Positions 16,893 through 50,632 of a stretch of 58,938 nucleotides of DNA are shown piece by piece. This DNA is from a virus, in IMG/VR virus record IMGVR_UViG_3300038954_000089, positions 1 through 58,938 of that record, one strand, 5' to 3'. The notes beneath the pieces were generated by a model. It saw only the letters and a list, made by a program, of their open reading frames with translations, was not told the DNA's origin and ran no database searches. Position numbers and translations under genes: made by a program. Position 1 is the first letter of the stretch. The number at the start of each line of letters is the position of its first letter.

Positions 16893-17807
16893 ATGGAAAC
16901 CATGCAAAATCAAGAGTTTGATACATTGCAAGCCACCAAAACATTTTTGAAATTCGCTTGCATGGCATTTTTCCCAATGCTGCTTGTAATTGTCATTGCC
17001 GGGATTTCCTATCAACTCATATCCGACGCCGGAGCCTTTTTCGGGGGCTGGTGGAAGGCTTTCTTTTTGGAAGCCGGGGCGCTGGCCCTGATCGCTTGGA
17101 GGCCAACGAACTGGACGAAGGTGCTTAAGGGGATTGCCCTGATTATTGCTTTTGGCCTGGTGGTTAACGCCGCCGGTATGCACGCCGCAAAACCTCACCT
17201 GGAGGACAGCGGCCTTGCAACGGTGGACCGGATGAAGCTGGAAGCCCTGGAAAGCTCCATCGAGGCGCACAGGGAAGCCGTGGCAGCCGTCAAGGGCCAA
17301 CCGCGCAACTCGGCGATGCGGGCCGGTGACCTGTCCGAAGCCATCGCGACAAGGGACGCATTTCTCGATAGCGTGGAACCGGATAAAACCGTTGTTGCAG
17401 AAAACCACATGGCAGCCGGAACCGCTATTCTTTTTCGTGCTGCGCTACAAGCAATAAACTGGCTTTTGCTGCATTGGCTTGTGTCTATAATTTCGATCAA
17501 AATGGGGAATGACCGTGAAAAGCGTATTGACGTTGCGCCAAATCCTCAACCGTCAGAAGTGAAAACCTCACCGGAACCGGAGGGAAAACCGCTTGCAAGC
17601 GCCGTCAAGTGGGATTCGGAAACACTCAAAATCCTAAGCAAGATCGAGCAAAACGGCGGTCAAATCAAGCGATTGAAGTTGCAGCAAGCGCGGATTGCCG
17701 ACACTGCCGGGCTTGACCCGAGACTGAATCAGCTTTTGGAGGCGGGGGTAATCGATCAGGAGCGGAACGGCAGATTGACCGAAACCATTTACAGGTTGAG
17801 GGGGTAA
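16893..17807 (+). CDS. Polytopic membrane protein with a C-terminal HTH-like tail
   Basis: About 304 residues from the ATG at 16893 (AAAAGG upstream); an in-frame ATG at 16866 lacks a site. Two or three hydrophobic segments lie at about residues 20-75, with another near 190-210. Between them is a helical loop with coiled-coil character. The cytoplasmic end (residues 245-304) holds ILSKIEQNGGQIKRLKL and ARIADTAGLDPRLNQLLEAG, which resembles a winged helix. It begins the membrane-protein module that runs to 23195. Function unknown. Confidence 0.65.
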   Translation: METMQNQEFDTLQATKTFLKFACMAFFPMLLVIVIAGISYQLISDAGAFFGGWWKAFFLEAGALALIAWRPTNWTKVLKGIALIIAFGLVVNAAGMHAAKPHLEDSGLATVDRMKLEALESSIEAHREAVAAVKGQPRNSAMRAGDLSEAIATRDAFLDSVEPDKTVVAENHMAAGTAILFRAALQAINWLLLHWLVSIISIKMGNDREKRIDVAPNPQPSEVKTSPEPEGKPLASAVKWDSETLKILSKIEQNGGQIKRLKLQQARIADTAGLDPRLNQLLEAGVIDQERNGRLTETIYRLRG

Positions 17808-26004: not shown

Positions 26005-26080
26005 AGCCGAAACGCCCTTCGGGGCGTCCGTCGGGGCGGTTCCCGGCGCTGACGAGGCAACCAAAAATGGAGTTTTCATA

Positions 26081-27436: not shown

Positions 27437-27819
27437 GACTATGGCACTATAAGCTAATCCCCCACCTTGACCGTCAGCGCCTACTCGGCCAGCACCGAGA
27501 ATGCTGTGCCTTGAGGGGCCACGGGTGGGGGAAAAAACACGCGACGGTAGACTACGTTTTCGAGCACCACTATGCCATGCTGTTCAACTATCATTGCCTC
27601 ATAATGGCAGAAATGACGAGGCGAGGATATAGCGTCACAGACGATTGGTGGATTCCACCATATCGCGGCAAGAAGATAGGCCATGACCACTCACCTTTCA
27701 CCAAAATCCCGAACAATCAATGCATCTACCCGGATCATGACGAAAAGTATCTTAATGAATGCACTGAGAATTTGAGGGACAAGGGGGTGAACATCTGCCG
27801 AAAAACGATTGTCGGTTAA
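27433..27819 (+). CDS. Pyrimidine-dimer DNA glycosylase-like protein (T4 DenV-like)
   Basis: The 128-residue product matches what I know of the Pyr_excise family: MRLWHYKLIPHLDRQRLLGQHRECCALRG... The sequence continues with HATVDYVFEHHYAMLFNYH and a RRGYSVTDDW segment. The members resemble T4 endonuclease V, which cuts at UV dimers. The start lies in an ATGA overlap. Its presence suggests the phage repairs UV damage. Confidence 0.75.
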   Translation: MRLWHYKLIPHLDRQRLLGQHRECCALRGHGWGKKHATVDYVFEHHYAMLFNYHCLIMAEMTRRGYSVTDDWWIPPYRGKKIGHDHSPFTKIPNNQCIYPDHDEKYLNECTENLRDKGVNICRKTIVG

Positions 27820-27837
27820 CTGCTGGATAGGTGAATT

Positions 27838-28092
27838 GTGAATGTGAGTGAGTGTACCGGTTGTGGGCAATGCTGTTTGTCAGAGCAATGTGAGGCTTCA
27901 AAAATAGCCGTTGGATCGTCTGACAATATCTGCCCTTTTTTAAAACTATCATCACCTGGTTTTTATAGATGTCTCTTGGTTGAGCTTGAAGAATCGACAG
28001 ATTTAGACCCATTAATTAAAAATGCTTTAGCGATTGGTTTTGGATGCACAAATGATTTTAAGTCACCTAACCAGGGTAGTACAGCGGACTAA
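27838..28092 (+). CDS. CxxCxxCC (YkgJ-like) metal-binding protein in a cassette
   Basis: An 84-residue product with CTGCGQCC at residues 6-13 followed by three more Cys, as in YkgJ-type zinc/iron-chelating domains. The GTG start has GGATAGGTG upstream. The stop TAA lies inside an attC-like site (28065-28116), as expected for an integron cassette gene. Confidence 0.6.
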   Translation: MNVSECTGCGQCCLSEQCEASKIAVGSSDNICPFLKLSSPGFYRCLLVELEESTDLDPLIKNALAIGFGCTNDFKSPNQGSTAD

Positions 28093-28116
28093 GGCCGCTC
28101 ACCTCAAACGTTATAG
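28065..28116 (+). mobile_element. attC-like site 1
   Basis: The left core ACCTAAC fits RYYYAAC exactly and the right core is GTTATAG (28110-28116). AGCGG/CCGCT arms with an unpaired A sit between them. The right part GCCGCTCACCTCAAACGTTAT follows the same pattern as the sites at 28569 and 33394. Confidence 0.55.
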
Positions 28117-28192
28117 AATAAAGATGTATGCCTAAACATCGACTAAGCGAAGAAGATTTTTATCCCACAACCATCTGCATTAGGAGAAAAAA

Positions 28193-28606
28193 ATGAAGGC
28201 ACTCTCGATACAACAACCGTGGGCGTGGGCAATCTTGCACGCGGGAAAGGATGTTGAAAACCGGACGTGGACACACAATTATCGTGGGCAAATTTTGGTT
28301 CATGCCGGCAAAAAGTTTGACAAAGCTGGATATGCTTGGCTGATCGATCAATCTCTTAGAAACGGCCCCATAAAGCTAACTATCGATGATATTCCAGCGA
28401 AAGAAGATTTTTATCGTGGCGGACTGGTCGGCCGTGTAGTAATCAAAAAAATGGTAAGGTCGATCGGATACTCTCCGTGGATGTTCGGTCCGTGGGGATG
28501 GGTCCTGGAGGACCCAGAGCCTATCGATTTTTTACCATACACGGGGCGCCTCGGATTGTTCGATGTCAATATAACCCGTCATACGAAAGGATGCGCCCGG
28601 CAATAG
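28193..28606 (+). CDS. ASCH domain protein in a cassette
   Basis: The 137-residue product starts MKALSIQQPWAWAILHAGKDVENR, the typical ASCH pattern, with YRGQILVHAGKKFD and GGLVGRVVI following. ASCH domains are thought to bind RNA or modified bases. AGGAGAAAA precedes the ATG. The stop lies inside the attC-like site at 28569-28640. It would be the only gene of a 524-bp cassette between two attC-like right cores (28110 and 28634). Confidence 0.75.
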   Translation: MKALSIQQPWAWAILHAGKDVENRTWTHNYRGQILVHAGKKFDKAGYAWLIDQSLRNGPIKLTIDDIPAKEDFYRGGLVGRVVIKKMVRSIGYSPWMFGPWGWVLEDPEPIDFLPYTGRLGLFDVNITRHTKGCARQ

Positions 28607-28640
28607 GAGGCCGGCCGCACCGCTCAATTCTACGTTATAC
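28569..28640 (+). mobile_element. attC-like site 2
   Basis: The left side AATATAACCCGTCA is identical to the 14 bases at the left of the 33394 site. The right core is GTTATAC (28634-28640) after CACCGCTCAATTCTAC. Arms GG-A-TGCG/CGCACC and CCGGC/GCCGG can pair, with an extra A on the left arm as in known attC sites. Confidence 0.6.
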
Positions 28641-28663
28641 AGGGAAAGGGGAAATGGCAGAAT

Positions 28664-29140
28664 ATGCGTTCAATACCAAGAGACGAACAGCAAATAAAAA
28701 CGTGGGAGCGGCATAAAAAGGATATCAACTTGGCCGCAGCAGAGTTGAAGATGACACCTCAAAAGCTACGCTACCGGTTGATAGCGTGGGGAGAATACAA
28801 GCCTACAACAATACAGGCTTGTAGAAATTGCAACAGAGATTTCTACGCAAGACGAAATCATGTTCGATGTCCAGAATGCCGCCGTAAGGAGGCGACCAGA
28901 AAAAACTCAGTAAAAAGGCGGAGAAAGCTGGATGTTGAGAAGCCAGAAAAAGTACCGCCCCGATGGCATGATTGCCGATTTTACGAGCGGTGCCTCAACG
29001 AATCGGCACGAAAAAGTGCGGAAATGGATTGTAGGGACTGCAATTACTATTCCGAGATTTCACTCAAAGAACAGGTTGCCAAGTATTCCACATGCGTGGA
29101 AAGAAAAGTGCATGGATTCACACCTATGGAGACGTTTTAA
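28664..29140 (+). CDS. HTH and zinc-finger protein
   Basis: A 158-residue product. Residues 1-45 look like an HTH (INLAAAELKMTPQKLRYRL). Then come a zinc site (CRNCNRDF...CPEC) and a second Cys set (CRFYERC...CRDCNYYS). AAGGGGAAA lies upstream. The stop is next to the next gene start. Probably a DNA-binding regulator. Confidence 0.65.
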   Translation: MRSIPRDEQQIKTWERHKKDINLAAAELKMTPQKLRYRLIAWGEYKPTTIQACRNCNRDFYARRNHVRCPECRRKEATRKNSVKRRRKLDVEKPEKVPPRWHDCRFYERCLNESARKSAEMDCRDCNYYSEISLKEQVAKYSTCVERKVHGFTPMETF

Positions 29141-29365
29141 ATGCTTTATATCCCGAAGAAAATTCTTTCGAACTATCAGCTTACATATACGGACAAAGTG
29201 TTGTGGGCGATCTTTTCAGACAACCCCACAATTACCAACAGGGAAATTGGAAGTAAGGCAGGAATAGGCCCGAATGCGATTACGAGAAGCCTAAAAAGGC
29301 TGGAGCATTTTGGGTTTGTTGCAATCGACCCGAGTAGGCGCAATGGAGATTATCTAGGAAAGTAA
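29141..29365 (+). CDS. Winged-helix DNA-binding protein
   Basis: A 74-residue product with a wHTH pattern (TITNREIGSKAGIGPNAITR, then LKRLEHFGFVAID). It starts directly after the previous stop. Similar small wHTH proteins act in phage replication control. A promoter follows. Confidence 0.7.
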   Translation: MLYIPKKILSNYQLTYTDKVLWAIFSDNPTITNREIGSKAGIGPNAITRSLKRLEHFGFVAIDPSRRNGDYLGK

Positions 29366-29392
29366 AGGTAACCAAGTAGGATCGTTTTCTTC

Positions 29393-29421
29393 TTGACATC
29401 ACTAAACAAATATTATAATAT
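29393..29421 (+). promoter_or_regulatory. Promoter of the recombination operon
   Basis: -35 TTGACA (29393-29398), a 17-base spacer and -10 TAATAT (29416-29421); a perfect TATAAT lies two bases earlier, with spacing 15. Upstream is TTTTCTTC. Confidence 0.7.
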
Positions 29422-29452
29422 TACAGGCAAAGAAAGGGGGTGGTAAGGGGTG

Positions 29453-29602
29453 GTGACAATCATATCAATAAGCGCAGACAAGGAGGTGATCGACAAGTTT
29501 CGTGATCTGGCGCACAAGACGCGCCGGACGCAGAAAGATTTGTTCGCGGAAGCTGTTGGGTTGTTGGAGGAGAAGATAAAGGAGGAGGAGAAGAATGGCT
29601 AA
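29453..29602 (+). CDS. Ribbon-helix-helix-like small regulator
   Basis: A 49-residue product (GTG start after TAAGGGG). The pattern ISADKEVIDKFRDLAHKTRRTQKDLFAEAVGLL matches the product at 41463 by eye (KRFRELAVKTGKTQRELFDEAV). Both directly follow a TTGACA promoter, so each may repress its own operon. The end overlaps the next gene. Confidence 0.65.
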   Translation: MTIISISADKEVIDKFRDLAHKTRRTQKDLFAEAVGLLEEKIKEEEKNG

Positions 29603-30629
29603 AAAGGATGATAAATCAGGTCTGGATCTTCTGCGGGAACCGTTTCCAGCCAATCTTGTCTCTAAGTTGCCAAAACCGACCAAGCAGCAAACGGAAGCCG
29701 TTAAAAAGGATTTTAAGGCAGGCATTAGGTGCAAAGTGTGCGGGGCGTGGCACCATCCTAAAGTTGTCCATTTGGATTATGTAGGCCACGCAGCCTTAAC
29801 CGACCGACTTCTTGATTGTGATCCTGAATGGAATTGGGAGCCAATGTCAACAGACAGTAACGGCGCCCCAATGATCGACGACAATGGCGGCATTTGGATT
29901 AAATTAACGGTTTGCGGAGTTACCAGAATAGGATATGGGCACCCAGACGGAAAAACTGGAGGCAACGCGATCAAGGAAACAATCGGAGATGCACTGAGAA
30001 ATGCAGCCATGCGCTTTGGTGCAGCCCTTGATTTGTGGCACAAGGGCGATTTGCACCCTGATGAGGGGGACGACACTGGAGGTAACGGCACAGGGGCGCG
30101 AGAGGCTGATCCGCAGGATGCGACAGGCACACAAAAAGACGATACCGATGTCAGGATTAAAATGATTCGGAAAGAGATCACTGGGTATCTCAACTCCGAA
30201 TGGCTGGCATTCGACAAGAAGTCCGCGGGCGAAAAGTTCATGGAAGAAAACCCTTCTTTGGCCAGGCTGGAAAAATTTCGAGACAGCCTGTTGAAGCTAT
30301 ACGGCGAATGGCAGGAGGCGGAACGTCAGAAAAAAGAGGAGGATGACAAAAAACCTGAAAACCCGGTCGAAAAACCGTCAGAAAAAATGTGGCGGTGTAT
30401 CGTTTGCAATTCACAGTCAAAGGGCGGCAGCGACGATGCTACCAAAGACTGGAAACTGATATCAACCCAACAGACCGGGCCGCACATGGGCCTATGCCCA
30501 AAGCACGCCGGAGAAACAGCCGACAGCCTCCGCGATCAGGCCGAAGCCGCGAAAGAGAAAGGCAAAACGGCCGACGTGACGCGGTATGAAAAGGCTGCTG
30601 GCATTCTGGCAGACATGAAGGGCCAATGA
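29595..30629 (+). CDS. Rad52-like single-strand annealing protein
   Basis: A 344-residue product. Residues about 45-150 carry the phage Rad52 pattern: YVGHAALTDRLLDCDPEWNWEP, GIWIKLTVCGVTRIGYG, then IKETIGDALRNAAMRFGAALDLWHKG. A charged linker and a C-terminal zinc-like CIVC segment follow. It would pair complementary strands in recombination. It lies before a RuvC-like nuclease and SSB, as in phage recombination modules. Confidence 0.85.
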   Translation: MAKKDDKSGLDLLREPFPANLVSKLPKPTKQQTEAVKKDFKAGIRCKVCGAWHHPKVVHLDYVGHAALTDRLLDCDPEWNWEPMSTDSNGAPMIDDNGGIWIKLTVCGVTRIGYGHPDGKTGGNAIKETIGDALRNAAMRFGAALDLWHKGDLHPDEGDDTGGNGTGAREADPQDATGTQKDDTDVRIKMIRKEITGYLNSEWLAFDKKSAGEKFMEENPSLARLEKFRDSLLKLYGEWQEAERQKKEEDDKKPENPVEKPSEKMWRCIVCNSQSKGGSDDATKDWKLISTQQTGPHMGLCPKHAGETADSLRDQAEAAKEKGKTADVTRYEKAAGILADMKGQ

Positions 30630-30667
30630 AGGGCCAGAACCACCTCACATGAAACAACAATATAACC

Positions 30668-30700
30668 GCCCTGGCTCATGACCAGCCGGGGCAGAAAGGA
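30668..30700 (+). promoter_or_regulatory. Hairpin leader with ribosome site, copy 1
   Basis: A 9-bp stem (GCCCTGGCT with AGCCGGGGC, one G-T pair) with loop CATGACC is followed by AGAAAGGA. The same arrangement occurs at 31392-31423, with related sequence. Confidence 0.6.
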
Positions 30701-30709
30701 ACCACAAAC

Positions 30710-31384
30710 ATGCATTTTCATTGTGAGCTAATTATGCCAAAGTCAAGAAACATAGAGGAAGATGTCGAACAAATCATGGGAGACTTTTACGAAGGAAAGG
30801 ACGATGAAGAAATACATGGCGGAGAGTTTCATGATTTTTATGTCATAGGGGGGCGGTTCGCTGGAGCAAAGGAGTTGTGCAGGTACAGTGAAGACAAGCT
30901 GTCAGAGTTCTACAAGTTTTTACGGGAAAAAAAGGTGACCGTTTCCGGTCTCCAATTTGGCAAACAAGAAATTTATCCATCGTCACAGATCCCGATGGTG
31001 GATGAAGCATGGAACCGCTTTTTCCCGACTGAAAACGGAGAAACCACCCCTTGTCCGCTTTTTGCACACTCCAACGACCAGCGCGAAAATCTCGATATCA
31101 TTTCTTGCGACATCTGTAACGTGGATGAAATTCCAACAAATCTCGAATGTGAAAGGGTTATAATAGCAGGCCCTTCTATAAGAGAGGACAAATTAGAAGC
31201 AAAATATATGATTTGCAAGGATGTATGGAATGGCGTAAACCATATGCCGATAGCATGGGATTTACGCGTTTTATCCGCCATTGAGATGTTTGAGGAAAAA
31301 GGCGAGAGGTATCGGAATATTTATTGGGAGAAAATCAGGCCACGGCCAGACCATATATGTATAACAATTGACTATCACTTATAA
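30710..31384 (+). CDS. Phage protein of unknown function
   Basis: A 224-residue product containing HDFYVIGGRFAGAKEL near residue 45, a segment I have seen in unnamed phage proteins (F-x-D-Y-x(2)-IGGR). The C-terminal part has MPIAWDLRVLSAIEMFEEKG. Translation probably starts downstream of the hairpin leader. Function unknown. Confidence 0.65.
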   Translation: MHFHCELIMPKSRNIEEDVEQIMGDFYEGKDDEEIHGGEFHDFYVIGGRFAGAKELCRYSEDKLSEFYKFLREKKVTVSGLQFGKQEIYPSSQIPMVDEAWNRFFPTENGETTPCPLFAHSNDQRENLDIISCDICNVDEIPTNLECERVIIAGPSIREDKLEAKYMICKDVWNGVNHMPIAWDLRVLSAIEMFEEKGERYRNIYWEKIRPRPDHICITIDYHL

Positions 31385-31391
31385 AGTACGA

Positions 31392-31423
31392 GCCCCGGCT
31401 CACGACCGGCCGGGGCAGGAAGG
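31392..31423 (+). promoter_or_regulatory. Hairpin leader with ribosome site, copy 2
   Basis: A perfect 8-bp stem (GCCCCGGC with GCCGGGGC), loop TCACGACCG, then AGGAAGG. It shares CCGGCTCA-GACC-GCCGGGGCAG with the leader at 30668. No T tract follows, so it is not a terminator. Confidence 0.6.
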
Positions 31424-31428
31424 CTACG

Positions 31429-31893
31429 ATGACTAACCTTGTCGCGATAGATCCAGGCCCGGAGAAAAGCGCGTGGGTGTTATTTGATGAAGCACCGGTT
31501 ATGGCCGGGATCGATGACAACGAAAAACTCGTCAGAGAGATAGAGTTTTTAGATACGACACACCTGGCCGTCGAAATGGTCGCTTCATACGGGATGCCTG
31601 TTGGTCGAGAGGTTTTTGAAACTGCATTTTGGGCCGGACGTTTCGTAGAGGCATGGTTCGGAACATGGGAAAAAGTCTACAGGTCGGACGTAAAAATGTT
31701 TCTGTGCGGCAACATGAGGGCAAAAGATAGCCATATTCGGCAGGCACTGATAGACCTGTATCCTCGGACCGGAGGCGGTAAATGCCCTCAGATAGGGACC
31801 AAGGCGAAGCCGGGGCCGCTCTATGGATTCAAAAAGGACATGTGGGCCGCATTGGCGGTTGCCCATACCGTGGCTGGTAGACACGTTCCATGA
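31429..31893 (+). CDS. RuvC-like Holliday junction resolvase
   Basis: The 154-residue product has an RNase H-like fold with probable catalytic acids D8 (VAIDPG), E49 (AVEMVASYG) and D137 (KKDMWAALAVAH). The segments YRSDVKMFLCG and RQALIDLYP fit phage RuvC-like nucleases. It would resolve recombination branches before packaging. The end overlaps the next gene by ATGA. Confidence 0.82.
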   Translation: MTNLVAIDPGPEKSAWVLFDEAPVMAGIDDNEKLVREIEFLDTTHLAVEMVASYGMPVGREVFETAFWAGRFVEAWFGTWEKVYRSDVKMFLCGNMRAKDSHIRQALIDLYPRTGGGKCPQIGTKAKPGPLYGFKKDMWAALAVAHTVAGRHVP

Positions 31894-32237
31894 AATGCCC
31901 ATGCTGCGGCACGCCGTTGGTTATAGACGAATGGGGCGGCTGGATATGGACCTGCTTCCATTGCGATTACACGGCCAGGCCAGCAACGGATGAAGAGATT
32001 GAGGCACAGGAGAGGGTCGTTCAATTACCGTTTGAGGAAATTGGGGAAAAATGGATGCCTGACATAAGGGGACAGCTAAAAATAAAAAGTGTTAGGTTAA
32101 GGCAAACTGGCGATGTAGCCATATACCTTGATGTCTACCTTGAAGACGAGGACCAAAGGGTTTTCAAGGCTCAAACATCCAGTTTTTTGTTTGACCTTGA
32201 ATGCGTTGTTACGGCTGGTGATAAGTCCACACCGTAG
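31890..32237 (+). CDS. Zinc-ribbon protein of unknown function
   Basis: A 115-residue product. Residues 3-25 form a zinc ribbon (CPCCGTP...WTCFHCDY). The rest is beta-rich. A 27-base stretch in its coding region (31987-32013) is repeated, with one change, in front of the gene at 34772. Confidence 0.65.
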   Translation: MKCPCCGTPLVIDEWGGWIWTCFHCDYTARPATDEEIEAQERVVQLPFEEIGEKWMPDIRGQLKIKSVRLRQTGDVAIYLDVYLEDEDQRVFKAQTSSFLFDLECVVTAGDKSTP

Positions 32238-32312
32238 TCATCACTTTTAGCCCAAAAATGATAAACAAAAGAATTTTACGTTTAATTTTTCAAGACAAGG
32301 AAGGATTGATTT

Positions 32313-32717
32313 ATGGCGGGTTTAAACAAAATGTCAATTATCGGCTTTTGCGGTCGGGACAGTGAGGTTCGCTATTCTGCACAAGGGATGGCAATTACAA
32401 ATTTCTCCGTCGCGGTCTCTGAGAAAATCAAGGGCGAGGACAAAACGTTATGGTTCAAAATTGTGTGTTTCGGTAAGCTCGGAGAATTGATGGGCGAGAT
32501 GATCCGACGGGGACAACAGGTTTACATAGAGGGCCGCCTCCAGACAAGCGAATGGGAAGACAGGGACGGTAATAGGCGATTCAACCTCGAAATTGTGGCG
32601 AATCAGGTCATTCTGCTCGGCAGCAAATCCGACAACAACCAATCCCGCCAGCGTCACGACGAACAAAAGCGGAATGGGTATCAACCGGAAGCGGATGATG
32701 ACTCAATTCCGTTTTAG
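32313..32717 (+). CDS. ssb: Single-stranded DNA-binding protein
   Basis: The 134-residue product follows the bacterial SSB plan: an OB fold at residues 1-108 (MSIIGFCGRDSEVRYSAQG, then WFKIVCFGKLGELM and QQVYIEGRLQT), a short polar linker and the acidic tip DDSIPF that binds partner proteins. AAGGA lies upstream. It fits with the Rad52-like and primase-helicase genes nearby. Confidence 0.93.
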   Translation: MAGLNKMSIIGFCGRDSEVRYSAQGMAITNFSVAVSEKIKGEDKTLWFKIVCFGKLGELMGEMIRRGQQVYIEGRLQTSEWEDRDGNRRFNLEIVANQVILLGSKSDNNQSRQRHDEQKRNGYQPEADDDSIPF

Positions 32718-32760
32718 CGTTGGAGTTTCTGTATGTTAACCTGTTATAATGCGAGGTAAA

Positions 32761-33123
32761 ATGAACTGTGACAAATGCGGGAGGTTTCACGATCATGGAC
32801 CTGGGAGTGCCTGGAAAGTGGTTTATTCAGGCGGACCTATTCCCATGCCCGATCGAGAGATTACGAGATGCCGGGCGTGCGTAGAAAAGCATGGCCCATT
32901 TTTACCGCAATACGGAATTAAGTCAGGCCATAGCTGTGGGCTCGTATCATCAGGGGAACAAACGTCAATACCTAATAATGCTGCGGTATCTTGCATAAAT
33001 GTGAATTGCGGGTGGGAAGGGGAACTCAAGGATTGCCCTGTTGAATGGGCCATAGAAACCTATGAAACTGGTCTATATCAAGTAGCTTTATGCCCTAAAT
33101 GTGGTGAAGAGTTTGATATTTGA
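32761..33123 (+). CDS. Multi-zinc-ribbon protein
   Basis: A 120-residue product with Cys pairs at the start (CDKCG), middle (CRACVEKH) and end (CGWEGELKDC, CPKCGEEF). The start at 32761 is chosen for GAGGTAAA; a second ATG lies 12 bases earlier. A TATAAT lies just upstream but with no good -35. Function unknown. Confidence 0.6.
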   Translation: MNCDKCGRFHDHGPGSAWKVVYSGGPIPMPDREITRCRACVEKHGPFLPQYGIKSGHSCGLVSSGEQTSIPNNAAVSCINVNCGWEGELKDCPVEWAIETYETGLYQVALCPKCGEEFDI

Positions 33124-33170
33124 TCAAATATGGACATGCGCGGGGTGGTCGTTAATTAAGGAAAATCACC

Positions 33171-33341
33171 ATGAAACGAAAAGACGTTTTAAGGTTGGCC
33201 GATTCACAGGACACAATTATGCGTGTATTGGCCAGGTCGTGGCTGGATGCGGATACAGGTGATTGGCCCCGCCAAAATGCGGGACAATGGAAGAGCCTGG
33301 TCGAGAAGGCCATTTCGCAACGGATCGAGGAGGGGGGATAG
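33171..33341 (+). CDS. Small helical protein
   Basis: A 56-residue product with helices (RKDVLRLADSQDTIMRVLARSWL, EKAISQRIEE). AAGGAAAAT lies upstream. It would belong to the cassette closed by the attC-like site at 33394, though the left border of that cassette is not clear. Confidence 0.5.
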   Translation: MKRKDVLRLADSQDTIMRVLARSWLDADTGDWPRQNAGQWKSLVEKAISQRIEEGG

Positions 33342-33393
33342 CTGAATGGACCACCGCCGCGAAACCCGTCGCGTGATATACGCAGGGACACTA

Positions 33394-33457
33394 ATATAAC
33401 CCGTCAGTTGAGGCGGACGCGGAAAAAGCCCCGCGCCGCTCACTTTAAGAGTTATGC
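33394..33457 (+). mobile_element. attC-like site 3 (best match)
   Basis: Cores ATATAAC (33394-33400) and GTTATGC (33451-33457). Between them TGAGGCGGACGCGG pairs with CCGCGCCGCTCA when one G and one A of the left arm are left unpaired, exactly the extrahelical-base layout of integron attC sites. The loop is AAAAAGCC. Confidence 0.75.
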
Positions 33458-33477
33458 AACACAAAAAAGGAGCCGAC

Positions 33478-33681
33478 ATGATTATTGAAATATATACACC
33501 GATGAACACGAAGCATGTGGTGGAAGCGGACAAGGAAGATAAACACCGTATCCTTGATTTGATTTTCTCAGCCGAATACGGCGACATAGATATCAAAACC
33601 CCTTCCGGCAGGCTTATTATTCCTCATGAGGTAAAACGACGATGCATTTTTATGGTCAAAGATCAGCATTCAACGGCATAA
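33478..33681 (+). CDS. Small cassette gene of unknown function
   Basis: A 67-residue product (IIEIYTPMNTKHVVEADKED, then FSAEYGDIDIKTPSGRLIIP). AAAAAGGAG precedes the ATG at 33478. It is enclosed by two attC-like right cores (33451 and 33734), giving a 283-bp one-gene unit. Its stop TAA is part of the left core of the next site, typical for cassettes. Confidence 0.6.
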   Translation: MIIEIYTPMNTKHVVEADKEDKHRILDLIFSAEYGDIDIKTPSGRLIIPHEVKRRCIFMVKDQHSTA

Positions 33682-33740
33682 CCCAATACCGAACCGGACC
33701 GGCGAAACAGCCAGCCGGCCGGTTACATTAGTCGTTAATC
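33676..33740 (+). mobile_element. attC-like site 4
   Basis: Cores GCATAAC (33676-33682) and GTTAATC (33734-33740). The arms AACCGG-A-CCGGC and GCCGGCCGGTT form an 11-bp stem with one unpaired A on the left arm. Confidence 0.7.
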
Positions 33741-33936
33741 ATAATGTGCGGGGCCGAATATGGCGGCTCGGTTGCGGGGAATTGTATCCTTTATGGCGTT
33801 TTTCCGGCGGACCAACTGGTCTGATGGGTACGCACCATAGGCGGCCCGGTGCGGCGATGTTGTAGCCGGAAGAGGAGTCGGGTGGGGAATCCGACCGCAT
33901 ATTTTTCTCGACACACTTTTTTGGGAGAGCGTAGAA
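33741..33936 (+). other. Non-coding stretch with hairpins
   Basis: No convincing reading frame. Palindromes are present (GACCAACTGGTC; GTCGG with CCGAC around 33880-33897). A TCGACA box near 33910 could be a poor -35. It may be the degraded rest of a cassette. Confidence 0.4.
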
Positions 33937-34143
33937 ATGGGATGCGATTTGTGCGGAGATGATACCGAAACAATTCACCTTCCTTTGTATGTTTTCGGTT
34001 CTGAAGGAATCGAAACGTGCCTACAATGTAGGCTTGTATTAACTGAAGTCGCGAGTGGTATCCGATCTGCTTCATACAAGGCGAGGAAACAGGGTTATCT
34101 TTCCGGGAAAATGATTCGTGGCGTATCAGGCAATGAGGATTGA
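33937..34143 (+). CDS. Small zinc-site protein
   Basis: A 68-residue product with CDLCGDD and CLQCRLV pairs and a basic end. The GGGAGAGCG site precedes the ATG. No family is recognised. Confidence 0.6.
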   Translation: MGCDLCGDDTETIHLPLYVFGSEGIETCLQCRLVLTEVASGIRSASYKARKQGYLSGKMIRGVSGNED

Positions 34144-34205
34144 CAATCCTATGAATTTATCGAGGCCTTTATCGACGTTTCCGCTTGACATATGGGAGTT
34201 ATAAT

Positions 34206-34478
34206 ATGGGAATTCACATTTTTTTATTAAAAGAAAGTAGCGCCGATCATCCTGATTGGGATTCGCTGAGACAAATCAACGACAGGAATTTTGCTGGATT
34301 AATTGATTATGAGCAAGTCGATATAAATCCAGATGATGAAGAAGAGTTTAGACCAGGAGATTTGGATAAATTAGTGGATAGAGTCAACAGAACGGATTGG
34401 TGCAATAAAGAAAGGTATTTGCATTTGATCGATTTATTAGAAAAAAACGATGAATACTGGCTTTATTTTTCAAGGTAA
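34206..34478 (+). CDS. Phage protein of unknown function
   Basis: A 90-residue product (MGIHIFLLKESSADHPDWDS start, then RDxF-like INDRNFAG). Similar acidic proteins beginning MGxxxFLLK occur in phages, to my recollection. GGGAG precedes it, and TTGACA lies 21 bases before the start but with no matching -10. Confidence 0.55.
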   Translation: MGIHIFLLKESSADHPDWDSLRQINDRNFAGLIDYEQVDINPDDEEEFRPGDLDKLVDRVNRTDWCNKERYLHLIDLLEKNDEYWLYFSR

Positions 34479-34491
34479 ATATAGGTGTATT

Positions 34492-34668
34492 ATGAAATGG
34501 AAAACATATTGGTGGGGGTGCAAGTTTTTAGCCGAAAATGATGATGAAGAAGAGTTTTTGAAAAAATTCAAACATATTTTGGGTGAAAAAACGTCAGATT
34601 GTTATGAGGAAGGAACCGCTGAGTTGATAGAATCAGATACTGAAATAATGCTTGAAATCAACAGGTGA
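34492..34668 (+). CDS. Small acidic protein
   Basis: A 58-residue product (MKWKTYWWGCKFLAEN start) with many Glu/Asp. It starts 13 bases after the previous stop. No family is recognised. Confidence 0.5.
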   Translation: MKWKTYWWGCKFLAENDDEEEFLKKFKHILGEKTSDCYEEGTAELIESDTEIMLEINR

Positions 34669-34771
34669 TTTATGCGCGGGGTGGGCGTTAATTGTCGCGG
34701 CGTTTATCGACGTTTCCCCTTGACACGGGGGCGGGGTCAGCGGATCAAGAGATTGAGGCACAGGAGATGAT

Positions 34772-47117: not shown

Positions 47118-47184
47118 GGATGGAATAGGGTAGCTCCCGAAAAGCAAGTGTCCTGGCTTGTCTGTCCATCCATTAACCCAGGAC
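47118..47184 (+). promoter_or_regulatory. Pseudoknotted leader RNA (riboswitch-like)
   Basis: GGATGGA (47118-47124) pairs with TCCATCC (47165-47171). Inside, GCAAG/CTTGT (47144-47148 with 47157-47161) closes a loop whose GTCCTGG (47150-47156) pairs perfectly with CCAGGAC (47178-47184). AGGAGG of the next gene begins 11 bases later. Stem-in-stem plus loop pairing beside a ribosome site is the layout of translational riboswitches or autoregulatory elements. It matches no class known to me. Confidence 0.55.
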
Positions 47185-47938: not shown

Positions 47939-48312
47939 TGCCTGCTGGAAGGCCGAAAAAACAAATCAACCTCGACGAAGCGGCGAAGCTGTGTAGCCTG
48001 CAATGTACCCTTTCCGAAATCGCCGGCTTTTTTGGTATCGATGAAGACACCGTACAGGCCAGGATAAGAGATGCTGGATATGACAATTTTTCGGCCTTCT
48101 ATAAAAAGCATTCCCACGGCGGGAAAATAAGTCTCAGGAGAAATCAGTTTAAGCTATCTGAGAAGAGCGCGGCCATGGCCATTTGGCTCGGCAAGCAATA
48201 TCTATGGCAATCTGATTATCCGAATCAAGAATTTGATGAAGAGATGGATGATGGTTTTTTTGACGCCTTGAACGACACCGCGCAGGAAGTGTTCGACGAT
48301 GGCGACGAATAA
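47938..48312 (+). CDS. Terminase small subunit
   Basis: The 124-residue product starts with PAGRPKKQINLDEAAKLCSLQCTLSEIAGFFGI, an HTH typical of small terminase subunits. An acidic end (QEFDEEMDDGFFDALND) would bind the large subunit. It sits right before TerL and overlaps it by 14 bases. Confidence 0.85.
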   Translation: MPAGRPKKQINLDEAAKLCSLQCTLSEIAGFFGIDEDTVQARIRDAGYDNFSAFYKKHSHGGKISLRRNQFKLSEKSAAMAIWLGKQYLWQSDYPNQEFDEEMDDGFFDALNDTAQEVFDDGDE

Positions 48313-50632
48313 GCGAGATCAAGCCCGTCCATTCAAGTGGGGGACGTTATCCCGGAAAGCCAAGCAGGCGCTTACCTGGTGGGTTGATTCGTCGCCGCAT
48401 CGGCACAAGGATATTTTTATCGCCGATGGTGCGGTCCGGTCGTCGAAATCCTTGTGTGTTTCATCTGCTTTTGTCGATTGGGCGATGGAGCGGTTTTCCG
48501 GGGAGTTGTTCGGTATGGCAGGTAAGACCATCGGATCATTTCGTCAAAATGTTCTGCGGGATTTAAAGCGCGTTATGGTTGGGCGGGGGTACACGTTCAA
48601 GGACCGGCGATCCGAGAACGTTTTGGAAGTATCCAAAGGCCGCCGTGTCAATGAATTTGAAATATTCGGCGGGAAAGATGAAGCAAGCCAGGATTTGATC
48701 CAGGGGCGGACGCTGGCCGGTTTTCTCGGTGACGAGGCAGCTCTTTATCCGCAGTCGTTTCTGAAGCAGGCGATGGCGCGATGCTCGGTTGACGGATCGA
48801 AAATATGGTTGACGTGCAATCCTGGACCGCCGCAGCACCCAATCAAAAAAGAGTTGATCGACCGTGCCAAAGAGTTGAATCTGCTTCATATCCACTTTAC
48901 CCTCGATGACAACCTCACCTTAACGGAATCCATCAAGAATCGGTACAAAGCACTGTATTCCGGTCTTTTTTTTAAGCGGTTCATTCTTGGCCTATGGGTC
49001 ATGGCCGACGGAATCATTTATGATATGTTCGATCCAGACCGGCATATAGTTGATGATGTGGATTTGACGGGATGGAATCAGCTTATATCCGGTGTCGATT
49101 ATGGCATCGGAAACCCGACAACATGGGATGAAACATGGACGGACGGTGAACGGTTCCACGTTGCGCGGGAATATTATCATTCATCCGGTGTGACCGGACG
49201 GCAGATGACGGATGATGAATATGCGGATGAATTCGATGCTTTCTGGGGAGAAAGACGGCCGGACAAGGTTTACATCGACCCGTCGGCCGCGTCGCTGAAA
49301 TTGGCATTGCAGAACCGTGGATATTCGATATTTTCAGCGGACAATGACGTGCTGGAGGGGATCAAGTATGTATCGACGCTTTTGCATACCGGAAAATTGA
49401 CGTTTTCACCGAGTTGCCACAACCTGATTGAGGAAATGGGTTCATATATTTGGGACGCCAATGCCCAAAAGCGCGGAGAAGATAAGCCGTTGAAGGCGAT
49501 GGACCATTGTTTTGCGGCTGGAACTATGGTCGAAACAATCAATGGAGAGGTGCCGATAGAAGAGATAGTGGAGGGCGACTTGGTTTTAACGTCGCAAGGG
49601 TTCAAGAACGTTTTGTCTTCTGGCATAACGTCAAAAAATGCAGAGGTATTCGATTTCTTGATGCCTAACGATACAGTTTTAATTGCAACAAAAGGACACC
49701 CGGTGTATACTGAATGCAATGGATTTGTTGAAATATCAAACCTTAAAAAGGGGGATGTTTTAAAATGCCTTTGCAAGCAGAAACACAGGAGTTTAACGGA
49801 ATCGTGTATAGACGTTATCCAGAATCAGAAACAATGTCAGATCGGCGGTATTTTAGGTGTAATTCAAACCATTTTGAAAAGGGCTTACGATATTTGCATC
49901 GAGACATTTGGAAGTTTCATTACGGAGAAATACCGAATGGACACCATATCCACCACATCGATGGGGACTTTTCAAATAACTCCATCGAAAACTTACGGCT
50001 TGTCCATGCCTCTGAGCACTTATCAGAACACGGAAAGAAAGGGTGGGAAAATAGGATCGAAGAAGGGCTTAAACGTCTCGAAGAAATCAGGCCGCTTGCC
50101 GCTAAGTGGCATAGCAGCGAAGAAGGTAAAAAATGGCATTCTGAACATGCCAAAAAAGTTTTTGGCAATCTTCCGTATAGACGGTCGTCGTGTGAGGTTT
50201 GCGGGAAAGAATACGAAACAAAGAGACCGGATTTGTCAAGATTTTGCTCCAATAACTGCAAATCAAAATTCAGGAGAATGTCAGGCATTGACGACATTGC
50301 AAGGCAATGTAAAAGATGTGGGAAAGAGTTTGTTATTAACAAATACAGCAAGACGATCTTTTGTTCAGGCCGTTGTGCAAAAAAATATCATTGGGGAAAA
50401 TAAGCGAACGGCAACGGTTTACAATTTGACTGTTGATAATTGCCCGGAGTTTTTTGCCAATGGGGTATTGGTTCATAATTGTCAGGATCGCACTCGCTAC
50501 GCCCTATTTTCGCATTCTGGCAAATGGGCAAGAACTCCTCTTTCATACGCCGGAGCGGATCAAGGCCAAACAGCGACCACTCGGAAAGATGGCAAGCAAC
50601 GACCTACCCGCAGAATGCGAGGATTGAGATAA
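48299..50632 (+). CDS. Terminase large subunit precursor containing an intein
   Basis: A 777-residue precursor. The N-extein (1-403) has Walker A GAVRSSKS (44-51), Walker B-like FLGDEAALY (about 145), then nuclease motifs SGVDYG (about 265) and KVYIDPSAAS. The intein covers residues 404-727. The C-extein (728-777) starts CQDRTRYALF, completing the nuclease motif AMDH-CQD. Splicing would leave a 453-residue enzyme, normal for phage terminases. A separate HNH gene lies inside the intein in another frame. Confidence 0.92.
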   Translation: MATNKRDQARPFKWGTLSRKAKQALTWWVDSSPHRHKDIFIADGAVRSSKSLCVSSAFVDWAMERFSGELFGMAGKTIGSFRQNVLRDLKRVMVGRGYTFKDRRSENVLEVSKGRRVNEFEIFGGKDEASQDLIQGRTLAGFLGDEAALYPQSFLKQAMARCSVDGSKIWLTCNPGPPQHPIKKELIDRAKELNLLHIHFTLDDNLTLTESIKNRYKALYSGLFFKRFILGLWVMADGIIYDMFDPDRHIVDDVDLTGWNQLISGVDYGIGNPTTWDETWTDGERFHVAREYYHSSGVTGRQMTDDEYADEFDAFWGERRPDKVYIDPSAASLKLALQNRGYSIFSADNDVLEGIKYVSTLLHTGKLTFSPSCHNLIEEMGSYIWDANAQKRGEDKPLKAMDHCFAAGTMVETINGEVPIEEIVEGDLVLTSQGFKNVLSSGITSKNAEVFDFLMPNDTVLIATKGHPVYTECNGFVEISNLKKGDVLKCLCKQKHRSLTESCIDVIQNQKQCQIGGILGVIQTILKRAYDICIETFGSFITEKYRMDTISTTSMGTFQITPSKTYGLSMPLSTYQNTERKGGKIGSKKGLNVSKKSGRLPLSGIAAKKVKNGILNMPKKFLAIFRIDGRRVRFAGKNTKQRDRICQDFAPITANQNSGECQALTTLQGNVKDVGKSLLLTNTARRSFVQAVVQKNIIGENKRTATVYNLTVDNCPEFFANGVLVHNCQDRTRYALFSHSGKWARTPLSYAGADQGQTATTRKDGKQRPTRRMRGLR
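49508..50479 (+). mobile_element. Intein in the terminase nuclease motif
   Basis: A 324-codon intein with block A CFAAGTMVET (Cys1), block B with TKGHPVYT, and block F ending VYNLTVDNCPEFFANGVLVHN before Cys+1. His-Asn at the end and Cys on both sides indicate standard class 1 splicing. The middle (about residues 90-300 of the intein) has no endonuclease in this frame; it is the shadow of the HNH gene at 49765-50403. Confidence 0.92.
49765..50403 (+). CDS. HNH homing endonuclease nested in the intein in another frame
   Basis: The 212-residue product has a classical HNH domain (YLHRDIWKFHYGEIPNG, HHIHHIDGDFSNNSIENLRLVHASEH) and two C-terminal treble-clef zinc sites (CEVCGKEY...FCSNNCK and CKRCGKEF...FCSGRCA). 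Its frame differs from the terminase-intein frame, and both stay open for 639 bases. AAGGGGGAT lies about 10 bases before the ATG, so it can be translated on its own. It would cut intein-free terminase genes and spread the intein. Confidence 0.9.
   Translation: MPLQAETQEFNGIVYRRYPESETMSDRRYFRCNSNHFEKGLRYLHRDIWKFHYGEIPNGHHIHHIDGDFSNNSIENLRLVHASEHLSEHGKKGWENRIEEGLKRLEEIRPLAAKWHSSEEGKKWHSEHAKKVFGNLPYRRSSCEVCGKEYETKRPDLSRFCSNNCKSKFRRMSGIDDIARQCKRCGKEFVINKYSKTIFCSGRCAKKYHWGK

What the first reader, a model, noticed from the sequence alone, without database searches (positions are those of the whole stretch)
33394..33740. Best attC pair encloses a 283-bp one-gene cassette
The 33394-33457 site folds TGAGGCGGACGCGG against CCGCGCCGCTCA with one G and one A extrahelical, the signature of attC. 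The site at 33676-33740 folds an 11-bp stem with one extrahelical A. The gene 33478-33681 fills the space, and its stop lies in the left core of the second site. The left 14 bases of the first site (AATATAACCCGTCA) recur exactly at 28569. No integron integrase was seen, so the cassettes arrived by another enzyme or with host DNA.
Basis: partly seen in the sequence, partly recalled or inferred. Interest (0 to 1): 0.85.

Follow-up and report, generated by a model that had tools for sequence, protein, structure and literature searches.

The report
Integron gene cassettes in a phage
An uncultivated bacterial virus carries two small groups of integron gene cassettes, the exchangeable one-gene units that bacteria usually shuffle with an integron, next to its own DNA-recombination genes and without the enzyme that moves them; this is a clear new case of something already reported in a few phages.

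Summary
A covariance model of attC sites, built only from bacterial integron cassettes, was run on the whole window. Its four best matches are all on the + strand: 33394-33457 (40.9 bits, E 2.6e-8), 28569-28640 (22.0), 33676-33740 (19.7) and, weakly, 28065-28116 (14.9). It finds 3 sites in phage TJE1, a published attC carrier, and nothing at E<=5 in 73 other viral loci, 942 kb. The 33452-33734 unit is exactly 283 bp. Its R'' box GCATAAC is the exact reverse complement of the unit's own start GTTATGC, as expected for a cassette that closed as a circle before insertion; 14 of 18 control cassettes show the same 7/7 match. A second unit, 28111-28634, carries an ASCH-like gene of a known phage family. 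The two pairs lie 5 kb apart, with annealing, Holliday-junction and SSB genes between them, so host contamination is unlikely. No integron integrase is in the window. Best reading: two integrase-less attC clusters (CALIN-like), most likely inserted by a host integron integrase at G|TT sites. Phage CALINs are published (PMC9892861): a new member of a known kind. Host and source were not found.

The parts
28065..28116 (+). attC S1 (degenerate, 52 nt): R'' ACCTAAC, L''/L' GCGGAC...GCCGCTCA, R' GTTATAG
   Evidence: 14.9 bits E 0.18, 18.0 bits E 0.059; fold alone not significant
28111..28634 (+). 524-bp cassette with the ASCH-like gene, G|TT to G|TT
   Evidence: R'' of S2 matches its own start 6/7
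28193..28606 (+). ASCH-like gene (phrog_3193, unknown function); stop TAG lies inside attC S2
   Evidence: phrog_3193 E 1.5e-43; Pfam ASCH 19 bits, below cut-off 21.2
28569..28640 (+). attC S2: R'' ATATAAC, R' GTTATAC; C and A at the two consensus extrahelical positions
   Evidence: 22.0 bits E 0.0024; not reported by model R2 with default filters
27838..28092 (+). 84-aa cysteine-rich gene, stop TAA inside attC S1; probable cassette gene whose 5' end is not resolved
   Evidence: no cassette start matching R'' at 3 or more of 4 bases upstream
33394..33457 (+). attC S3 (best site): R'' ATATAAC, 13 L-arm pairs with extrahelical T, G, A, R' GTTATGC
   Evidence: 40.9 bits E 2.6e-8, 39.8 bits
33452..33734 (+). 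283-bp one-gene cassette, G|TTATGC to G|TTAATC
33478..33681 (+). 67-aa orphan cassette gene
   Evidence: no Pfam or PHROG match, no relative in viral contigs, plasmids or 398 genomes
33676..33740 (+). attC S4: R'' GCATAAC (exact reverse complement of its own cassette start GTTATGC at 33451), 10 L-arm pairs, extrahelical A, R' GTTAATC
   Evidence: 19.7 bits E 0.0096, 23.5 bits, 7/7 circle match
32743..33451 (+). possible first cassette of cluster 2: GTTATAA (6/7 to S3 R'') 18 nt before ATG 32761; contains ORFs 32761-33123 and 33171-33341
   Evidence: inference, one of five 3-of-4 matches in the 2.5 kb upstream
29595..32717 (+). phage recombination genes between the two clusters: single-strand annealing protein 29595-30629, Holliday junction resolvase 31429-31893, SSB 32313-32717
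   Evidence: phrog_3290, phrog_1770, phrog_44, PF00436

Best explanation
These are genuine integron gene cassettes in a tailed-phage genome: two integrase-less attC clusters (CALIN-like), one at 28.1-28.6 kb and one at 33.4-33.7 kb, on the phage's coding strand. Shown by sequence: four attC-like sites; gene stops inside three of them; and a cassette whose R'' box pairs exactly with its own 5' end. Inferred mechanism: during infection the phage DNA meets a host integron. Single-stranded DNA folds the bottom-strand attC hairpin, the host IntI cuts at 5'-G|TT-3', and a free circular cassette joins either an attC already in the phage or a secondary G|TT (attG-type) site. The cassettes read in the phage's direction, and the region holds no more promoter-like sites than its shuffles, so they are probably expressed by phage read-through. 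They could be returned to any integron that the phage later meets.
For: attC models built without the window put the sites on top, all on +. Positive control: three sites in phage TJE1, in which Qi et al. reported 3 attC sites and tested two; window S3 outscores all three (PMC9892861). Negative controls: 0 matches E<=5 in 73 viral loci; 1 match at E 5 in 52 of those loci with R2. Circle rule: S4 7/7 and S2 6/7; in 18 control cassettes, 14 are 7/7, 2 are 6/7 and 2 are 2/7. In the circular form the S4 hairpin closes R''/R' fully (-15.6 against -12.2 kcal/mol). Stops of 27838-28092, 28193-28606 and 33478-33681 lie inside attC sites. Core phage genes lie between and around the clusters. No integron integrase. 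A second uncultivated phage record, G406, has six attC matches, all on +, in three regions; two of them (65849, 81512) have an exact 4-of-4 start 231 and 159 nt upstream without a detected attC in front, as insertion at a non-attC site would leave.
Against: S1 is weak: 14.9 bits, barely above an off-array match on the - strand at 17664-17717 (14.0 bits), and 59 of 200 shuffles fold as well. S2 was not reported by model R2, and its circular form does not fold better than the form in place. S4 lacks three outer L pairs. S2 and S4 could be inactive. The 5' boundaries of S1's and S3's cassettes are not resolved. No source integron, host or relative with an empty site was found. Insertion by IntI in trans is inferred, not shown.
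Confidence: 0.88

Rival explanations
1. The hairpins are intrinsic transcription terminators or other regulatory stem-loops between small early genes that resemble attC by chance.
For: They lie at gene ends; stem-loops at gene ends are common in phages; S1 and S4 are imperfect attCs.
Against: None of the four is among the 5 terminator-like sites of 27500-34500. A model of sequence and structure with R''/R' boxes ranks them first in the window while 942 kb of other viral loci give none. The exact circle match of S4 is not expected of terminators.
Confidence: 0.04
2. The cassettes came in with a block of host chromosome by illegitimate or homologous recombination (as Qi et al. suggest for some phages), not by integrase-mediated insertion at each place.
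For: No integrase in the record. attC-rich stretches that may be host flank do occur in viral records: G405, G407 and G409 carry dense arrays.
Against: The two clusters are 5 kb apart with phage genes between, so two imports would be needed. G406 shows lone cassettes with an exact start and no detected attC in front.
Confidence: 0.3
3. The window is a chimeric assembly of phage and host integron DNA.
For: Virus record with no close relative found.
Against: Two clusters interleaved with SSAP, resolvase, SSB and primase/helicase genes on one strand; GC of cassettes 0.475 and 0.449 against 0.479 for the DNA between.
Confidence: 0.02

Closest known systems
CALINs in phages (Qi et al. 2023, PMC9892861; e.g. 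Tetrasphaera phage TJE1 HQ225832)
   Same: Tailed phage, same-strand attC sites, one short gene per cassette with its stop in the attC, no integron integrase; the same model detects both. TJE1 uses closely similar boxes (GTTATAC, GTTATGC, GCATAAC).
   Different: Here two clusters 5 kb apart around the phage's recombination genes; one cassette carries a gene of a phage family (phrog_3193) rather than a methyltransferase; uncultivated phage, recombination not tested.
Class 1 and chromosomal integron arrays of Proteobacteria (R388 L075, L142, L151)
   Same: R''-L''-L'-R' hairpin with extrahelical A, G|TT boundaries, circle rule.
   Different: No intI found here; sites more degenerate (14.9-40.9 bits against up to 73.1).
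Insertion of cassettes at attG sites (Loot et al. 2024, Nat Microbiol; seen only as a reference in PMC11023631, content recalled)
   Same: Would explain dispersed cassettes without an integron.
   Different: Shown, as recalled, for bacterial genomes; no attG motif was tested here.
G406 / L160 (94,313-base virus record, portal phrog_213)
   Same: Six attC matches on one strand in three regions, cassette genes ending in attC.
   Different: A different phage; a cassette there carries a DNA methyltransferase.

Membership tests
attC site | R'' (...AAC) and R' (GTT...) boxes with a G|TT cleavage point at the ends | tested here: met
   All four sites
attC site | L''/L' hairpin with extrahelical bases on one arm, A at the conserved second position | tested here: met
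   Seen in the alignments of S1-S4; S1 weak, S2 with three mismatches, S4 without the outer three pairs
attC site | Recognised by an attC covariance model above the bit score of 20 that Qi et al. used | tested here: inconclusive
   Own models, not theirs: S3 40.9 and S2 22.0 pass with R1; S4 19.7 (R1) and 23.5 (R2); S1 14.9 and 18.0 fail
attC site | Bottom strand recombined by an integron integrase | not testable with these tools
   Needs the suicide-conjugation assay
Integron gene cassette | R'' complementary to the cassette's own 5' end (closed as a circle) | tested here: met
   67-aa cassette 7/7, ASCH cassette 6/7; controls 14 of 18 at 7/7
Integron gene cassette | One or few genes, stop close to or inside attC | tested here: met
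   Stops inside S1, S2, S4
CALIN | At least two attC sites close together (within 3 kb in Qi et al.) with no integron integrase | tested here: met
   S3-S4 282 bp apart, S1-S2 504 bp apart, start to start; no TIGR02249 match
Complete integron | intI gene and attI site | tested here: not met
   No integrase match in the record; attI was not searched for

The most novel reading that the evidence does not exclude
Some phages are routine landing platforms for host integrons: single cassettes enter at scattered G|TT points on the coding strand, are expressed by phage transcription, and phage-type genes (here the ASCH-like gene) become cassettes. Phages would then both receive cassettes from and donate genes to the integron pool.
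Probability: 0.4. Interest if true: 0.65.

Novelty: new member of a known kind. Interest (0 to 1): 0.45.

Why it matters
It adds an uncultivated phage to the few known to carry integron cassettes. It also shows a testable signature, the match between R'' and the cassette's own start, that fixes cassette boundaries even for lone cassettes. A phage-family gene in a cassette, and lone cassettes in a second phage, point to two-way traffic between phages and integrons.

Tried and rejected
Host and source: the pattern TATAACCCGTCAN{0,12}GCGGACGCG gave 0 in genome contigs and 0 in viral contigs. The 84-aa cassette protein matched 0 of 6 and 1 of 398 genomes (E 4.3e-4, 31% identity; not followed) and three Roseomonas plasmids at 40%. 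The 67-aa protein matched 0 of 398 genomes, no plasmid and no viral contig. Gene 28664-29137 and the primase-helicase found no relative in viral contigs, so no empty site could be compared. The ASCH gene has 14 relatives in viral contigs; I saw no attC beside those genes by eye, and R1 found none in those loci.

Terminators were considered and rejected.

Limits of the controls. Model R1 was trained on 15 sequences that I picked from the 155 candidates; a 16th was dropped after it misaligned. Model R2 was trained on 38 hits from 20 of the 80 genome loci. I left out singletons, the two hits of L117, the two of L081, two of the four of L153 and the + hit of L151. R1 found neither published site of P12002L; one of these two failed in the published assay. 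The pattern was written after seeing the window's sites.

Full report
What was checked. The window is a 58,938-base IMG/VR virus record with terminase, portal, capsid/protease, tape measure, primase/helicase, annealing protein, Holliday junction resolvase and SSB genes. The finding concerns 33394-33740.

The attC model. I took IntI1 from plasmid R388, fetched 80 bacterial loci that encode it or a relative, listed attC-like sequences by a simple script, aligned 15 of them and built covariance model R1 with the attC structure. The window was not used. Scoring every position of the window with R1 gave 8 matches up to E 10. The first four are 33394-33457 (40.9 bits, E 2.6e-8), 28569-28640 (22.0, 0.0024), 33676-33740 (19.7, 0.0096) and 28065-28116 (14.9, 0.18), all on +. 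The fifth is on - at 17664-17717 (14.0, 0.29). With default filters only these four are reported for the window, and phage TJE1 gives 38.9, 29.2 and 24.4 bits. Qi et al. describe 3 attC sites and 4 ORFs in TJE1's CALIN and tested TJE1_attC1 and attC2 with IntI1 (PMC9892861, abstract, sections 2.1 and 3.4 and passages read). In 73 other viral loci (942,095 bases) R1 finds nothing up to E 5. A second model from 38 hits gives 39.8, 23.5 and 18.0 bits for S3, S4 and S1 and does not report S2; in 52 of the 73 loci it finds one match at E 5. R1 finds none in P12002L, another published carrier, so it misses some sites.

Anatomy. S3 aligns with 13 L-arm pairs and extrahelical T, G and A on the top strand. 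The extra G column also occurs in training sequences, and a GAGGCGGAC...GCCGCTC site of this kind sits in a dense array in L161. S2 has C and A at both consensus extrahelical positions and three mismatched L-arm pairs. S4 has 10 L-arm pairs and the A. S1 keeps GCGGAC...GCCGCTCACCTCAAACGTTA, but its left arm is poor and its fold is not better than shuffles (59 of 200). S2 and S3 share the 14-mer AATATAACCCGTCA, found nowhere else in the window, which suggests a common source. None of the four is called a terminator.

The circle rule. When a circular cassette inserts, the R'' box of its attC should pair with the first bases of that same cassette, not with the R' that now follows. In 18 control cassettes the four variable bases match the cassette's own start at 3.56 of 4 on average and the R' in place at 2.33 of 4; 14 of 18 own-start matches are 7/7. 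In the window the 67-aa cassette is 7/7 with its own start and 5/7 with the R' in place; the ASCH cassette is 6/7 with both. Folding the circular form of S4 pairs the whole R''/R'; for S2 it changes nothing. For S1 no upstream start matches at 3 or more of 4 bases. For S3 the nearest is GTTATAA at 32743, 18 nt before ATG 32761; that S3's cassette begins there is an inference.

What the cassettes carry. The 67-aa protein has no match in Pfam, PHROGs, viral contigs, plasmids or 398 genomes. The ASCH-like protein belongs to phrog_3193 (E 1.5e-43), a family of phage proteins of unknown function, with 14 relatives in viral contigs, none with an attC by R1. The 84-aa protein before S1 is cysteine-rich and has weak plasmid relatives.

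How common. A strict attC string occurs in 6 further IMG/VR contigs; R1 confirms attC sites in 5 of those 6 records. G405, G407 and G409 carry 8, 15 and 9 matches, dense arrays that may be host flank. G406 (94,313 bases) has a portal gene (phrog_213), replication genes and six attC matches on + at about 8.4-9.5, 65.8 and 81.5-81.8 kb. At 65849 the expected start GTTAGGT lies 231 nt upstream, 12 nt before an ORF that ends in the attC. At 81512 the exact start lies 159 nt upstream. In neither case does a detected attC precede it closely. Of the other four, one has the exact start at the preceding attC, two match it at 3 of 4, and one has none in the 0.4 kb available. A lone cassette with an exact start is the mark expected of insertion outside an integron, at a G|TT site.

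Interpretation. Sequence shows attC sites, cassettes and the absence of an integron integrase. That a host integrase inserted them, at attC or at secondary sites, is inferred from the known biochemistry of IntI (recalled) and from the published activity of phage attC sites. The kind is known: my paper searches found one study devoted to attC sites in phages, PMC9892861. None of the listed titles describes dispersed cassettes in uncultivated phages, but the library is partial.

Noticed in passing
26005-26066 +: Type II hammerhead ribozyme (RF02276, 53.3 bits, E 3.5e-8), 2 kb upstream of the first attC cluster.
   Followed up: no
47118-47183 +: int-alpA RNA (RF02996, 37.8 bits) upstream of the terminase genes, although no phage integrase was recognised in the proteins scanned.
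   Followed up: no
48299-50632 +: The 777-aa large terminase has an intein: Hint and intein-splicing Pfam domains at residues 404-727, where terminase relatives stop aligning.
   Followed up: partly
33136-33157 and 34672-34693: Near-identical repeat ATGCGCGGGGTGG(T/G)CGTTAATT, with further repeats around CTTGACA at 34157, 34692 and 34966: possible repeated early promoters or operators, or G|TT landing sequences.
   Followed up: no
G406 / L160:4675-7446: Portal gene of the second attC-bearing phage record is interrupted by an HNH-bearing insert, perhaps an intein.
   Followed up: no
window 34534-34577: 44 bases 91% identical to Proteus phage Privateer, in an acidic low-complexity stretch; probably chance.
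   Followed up: no
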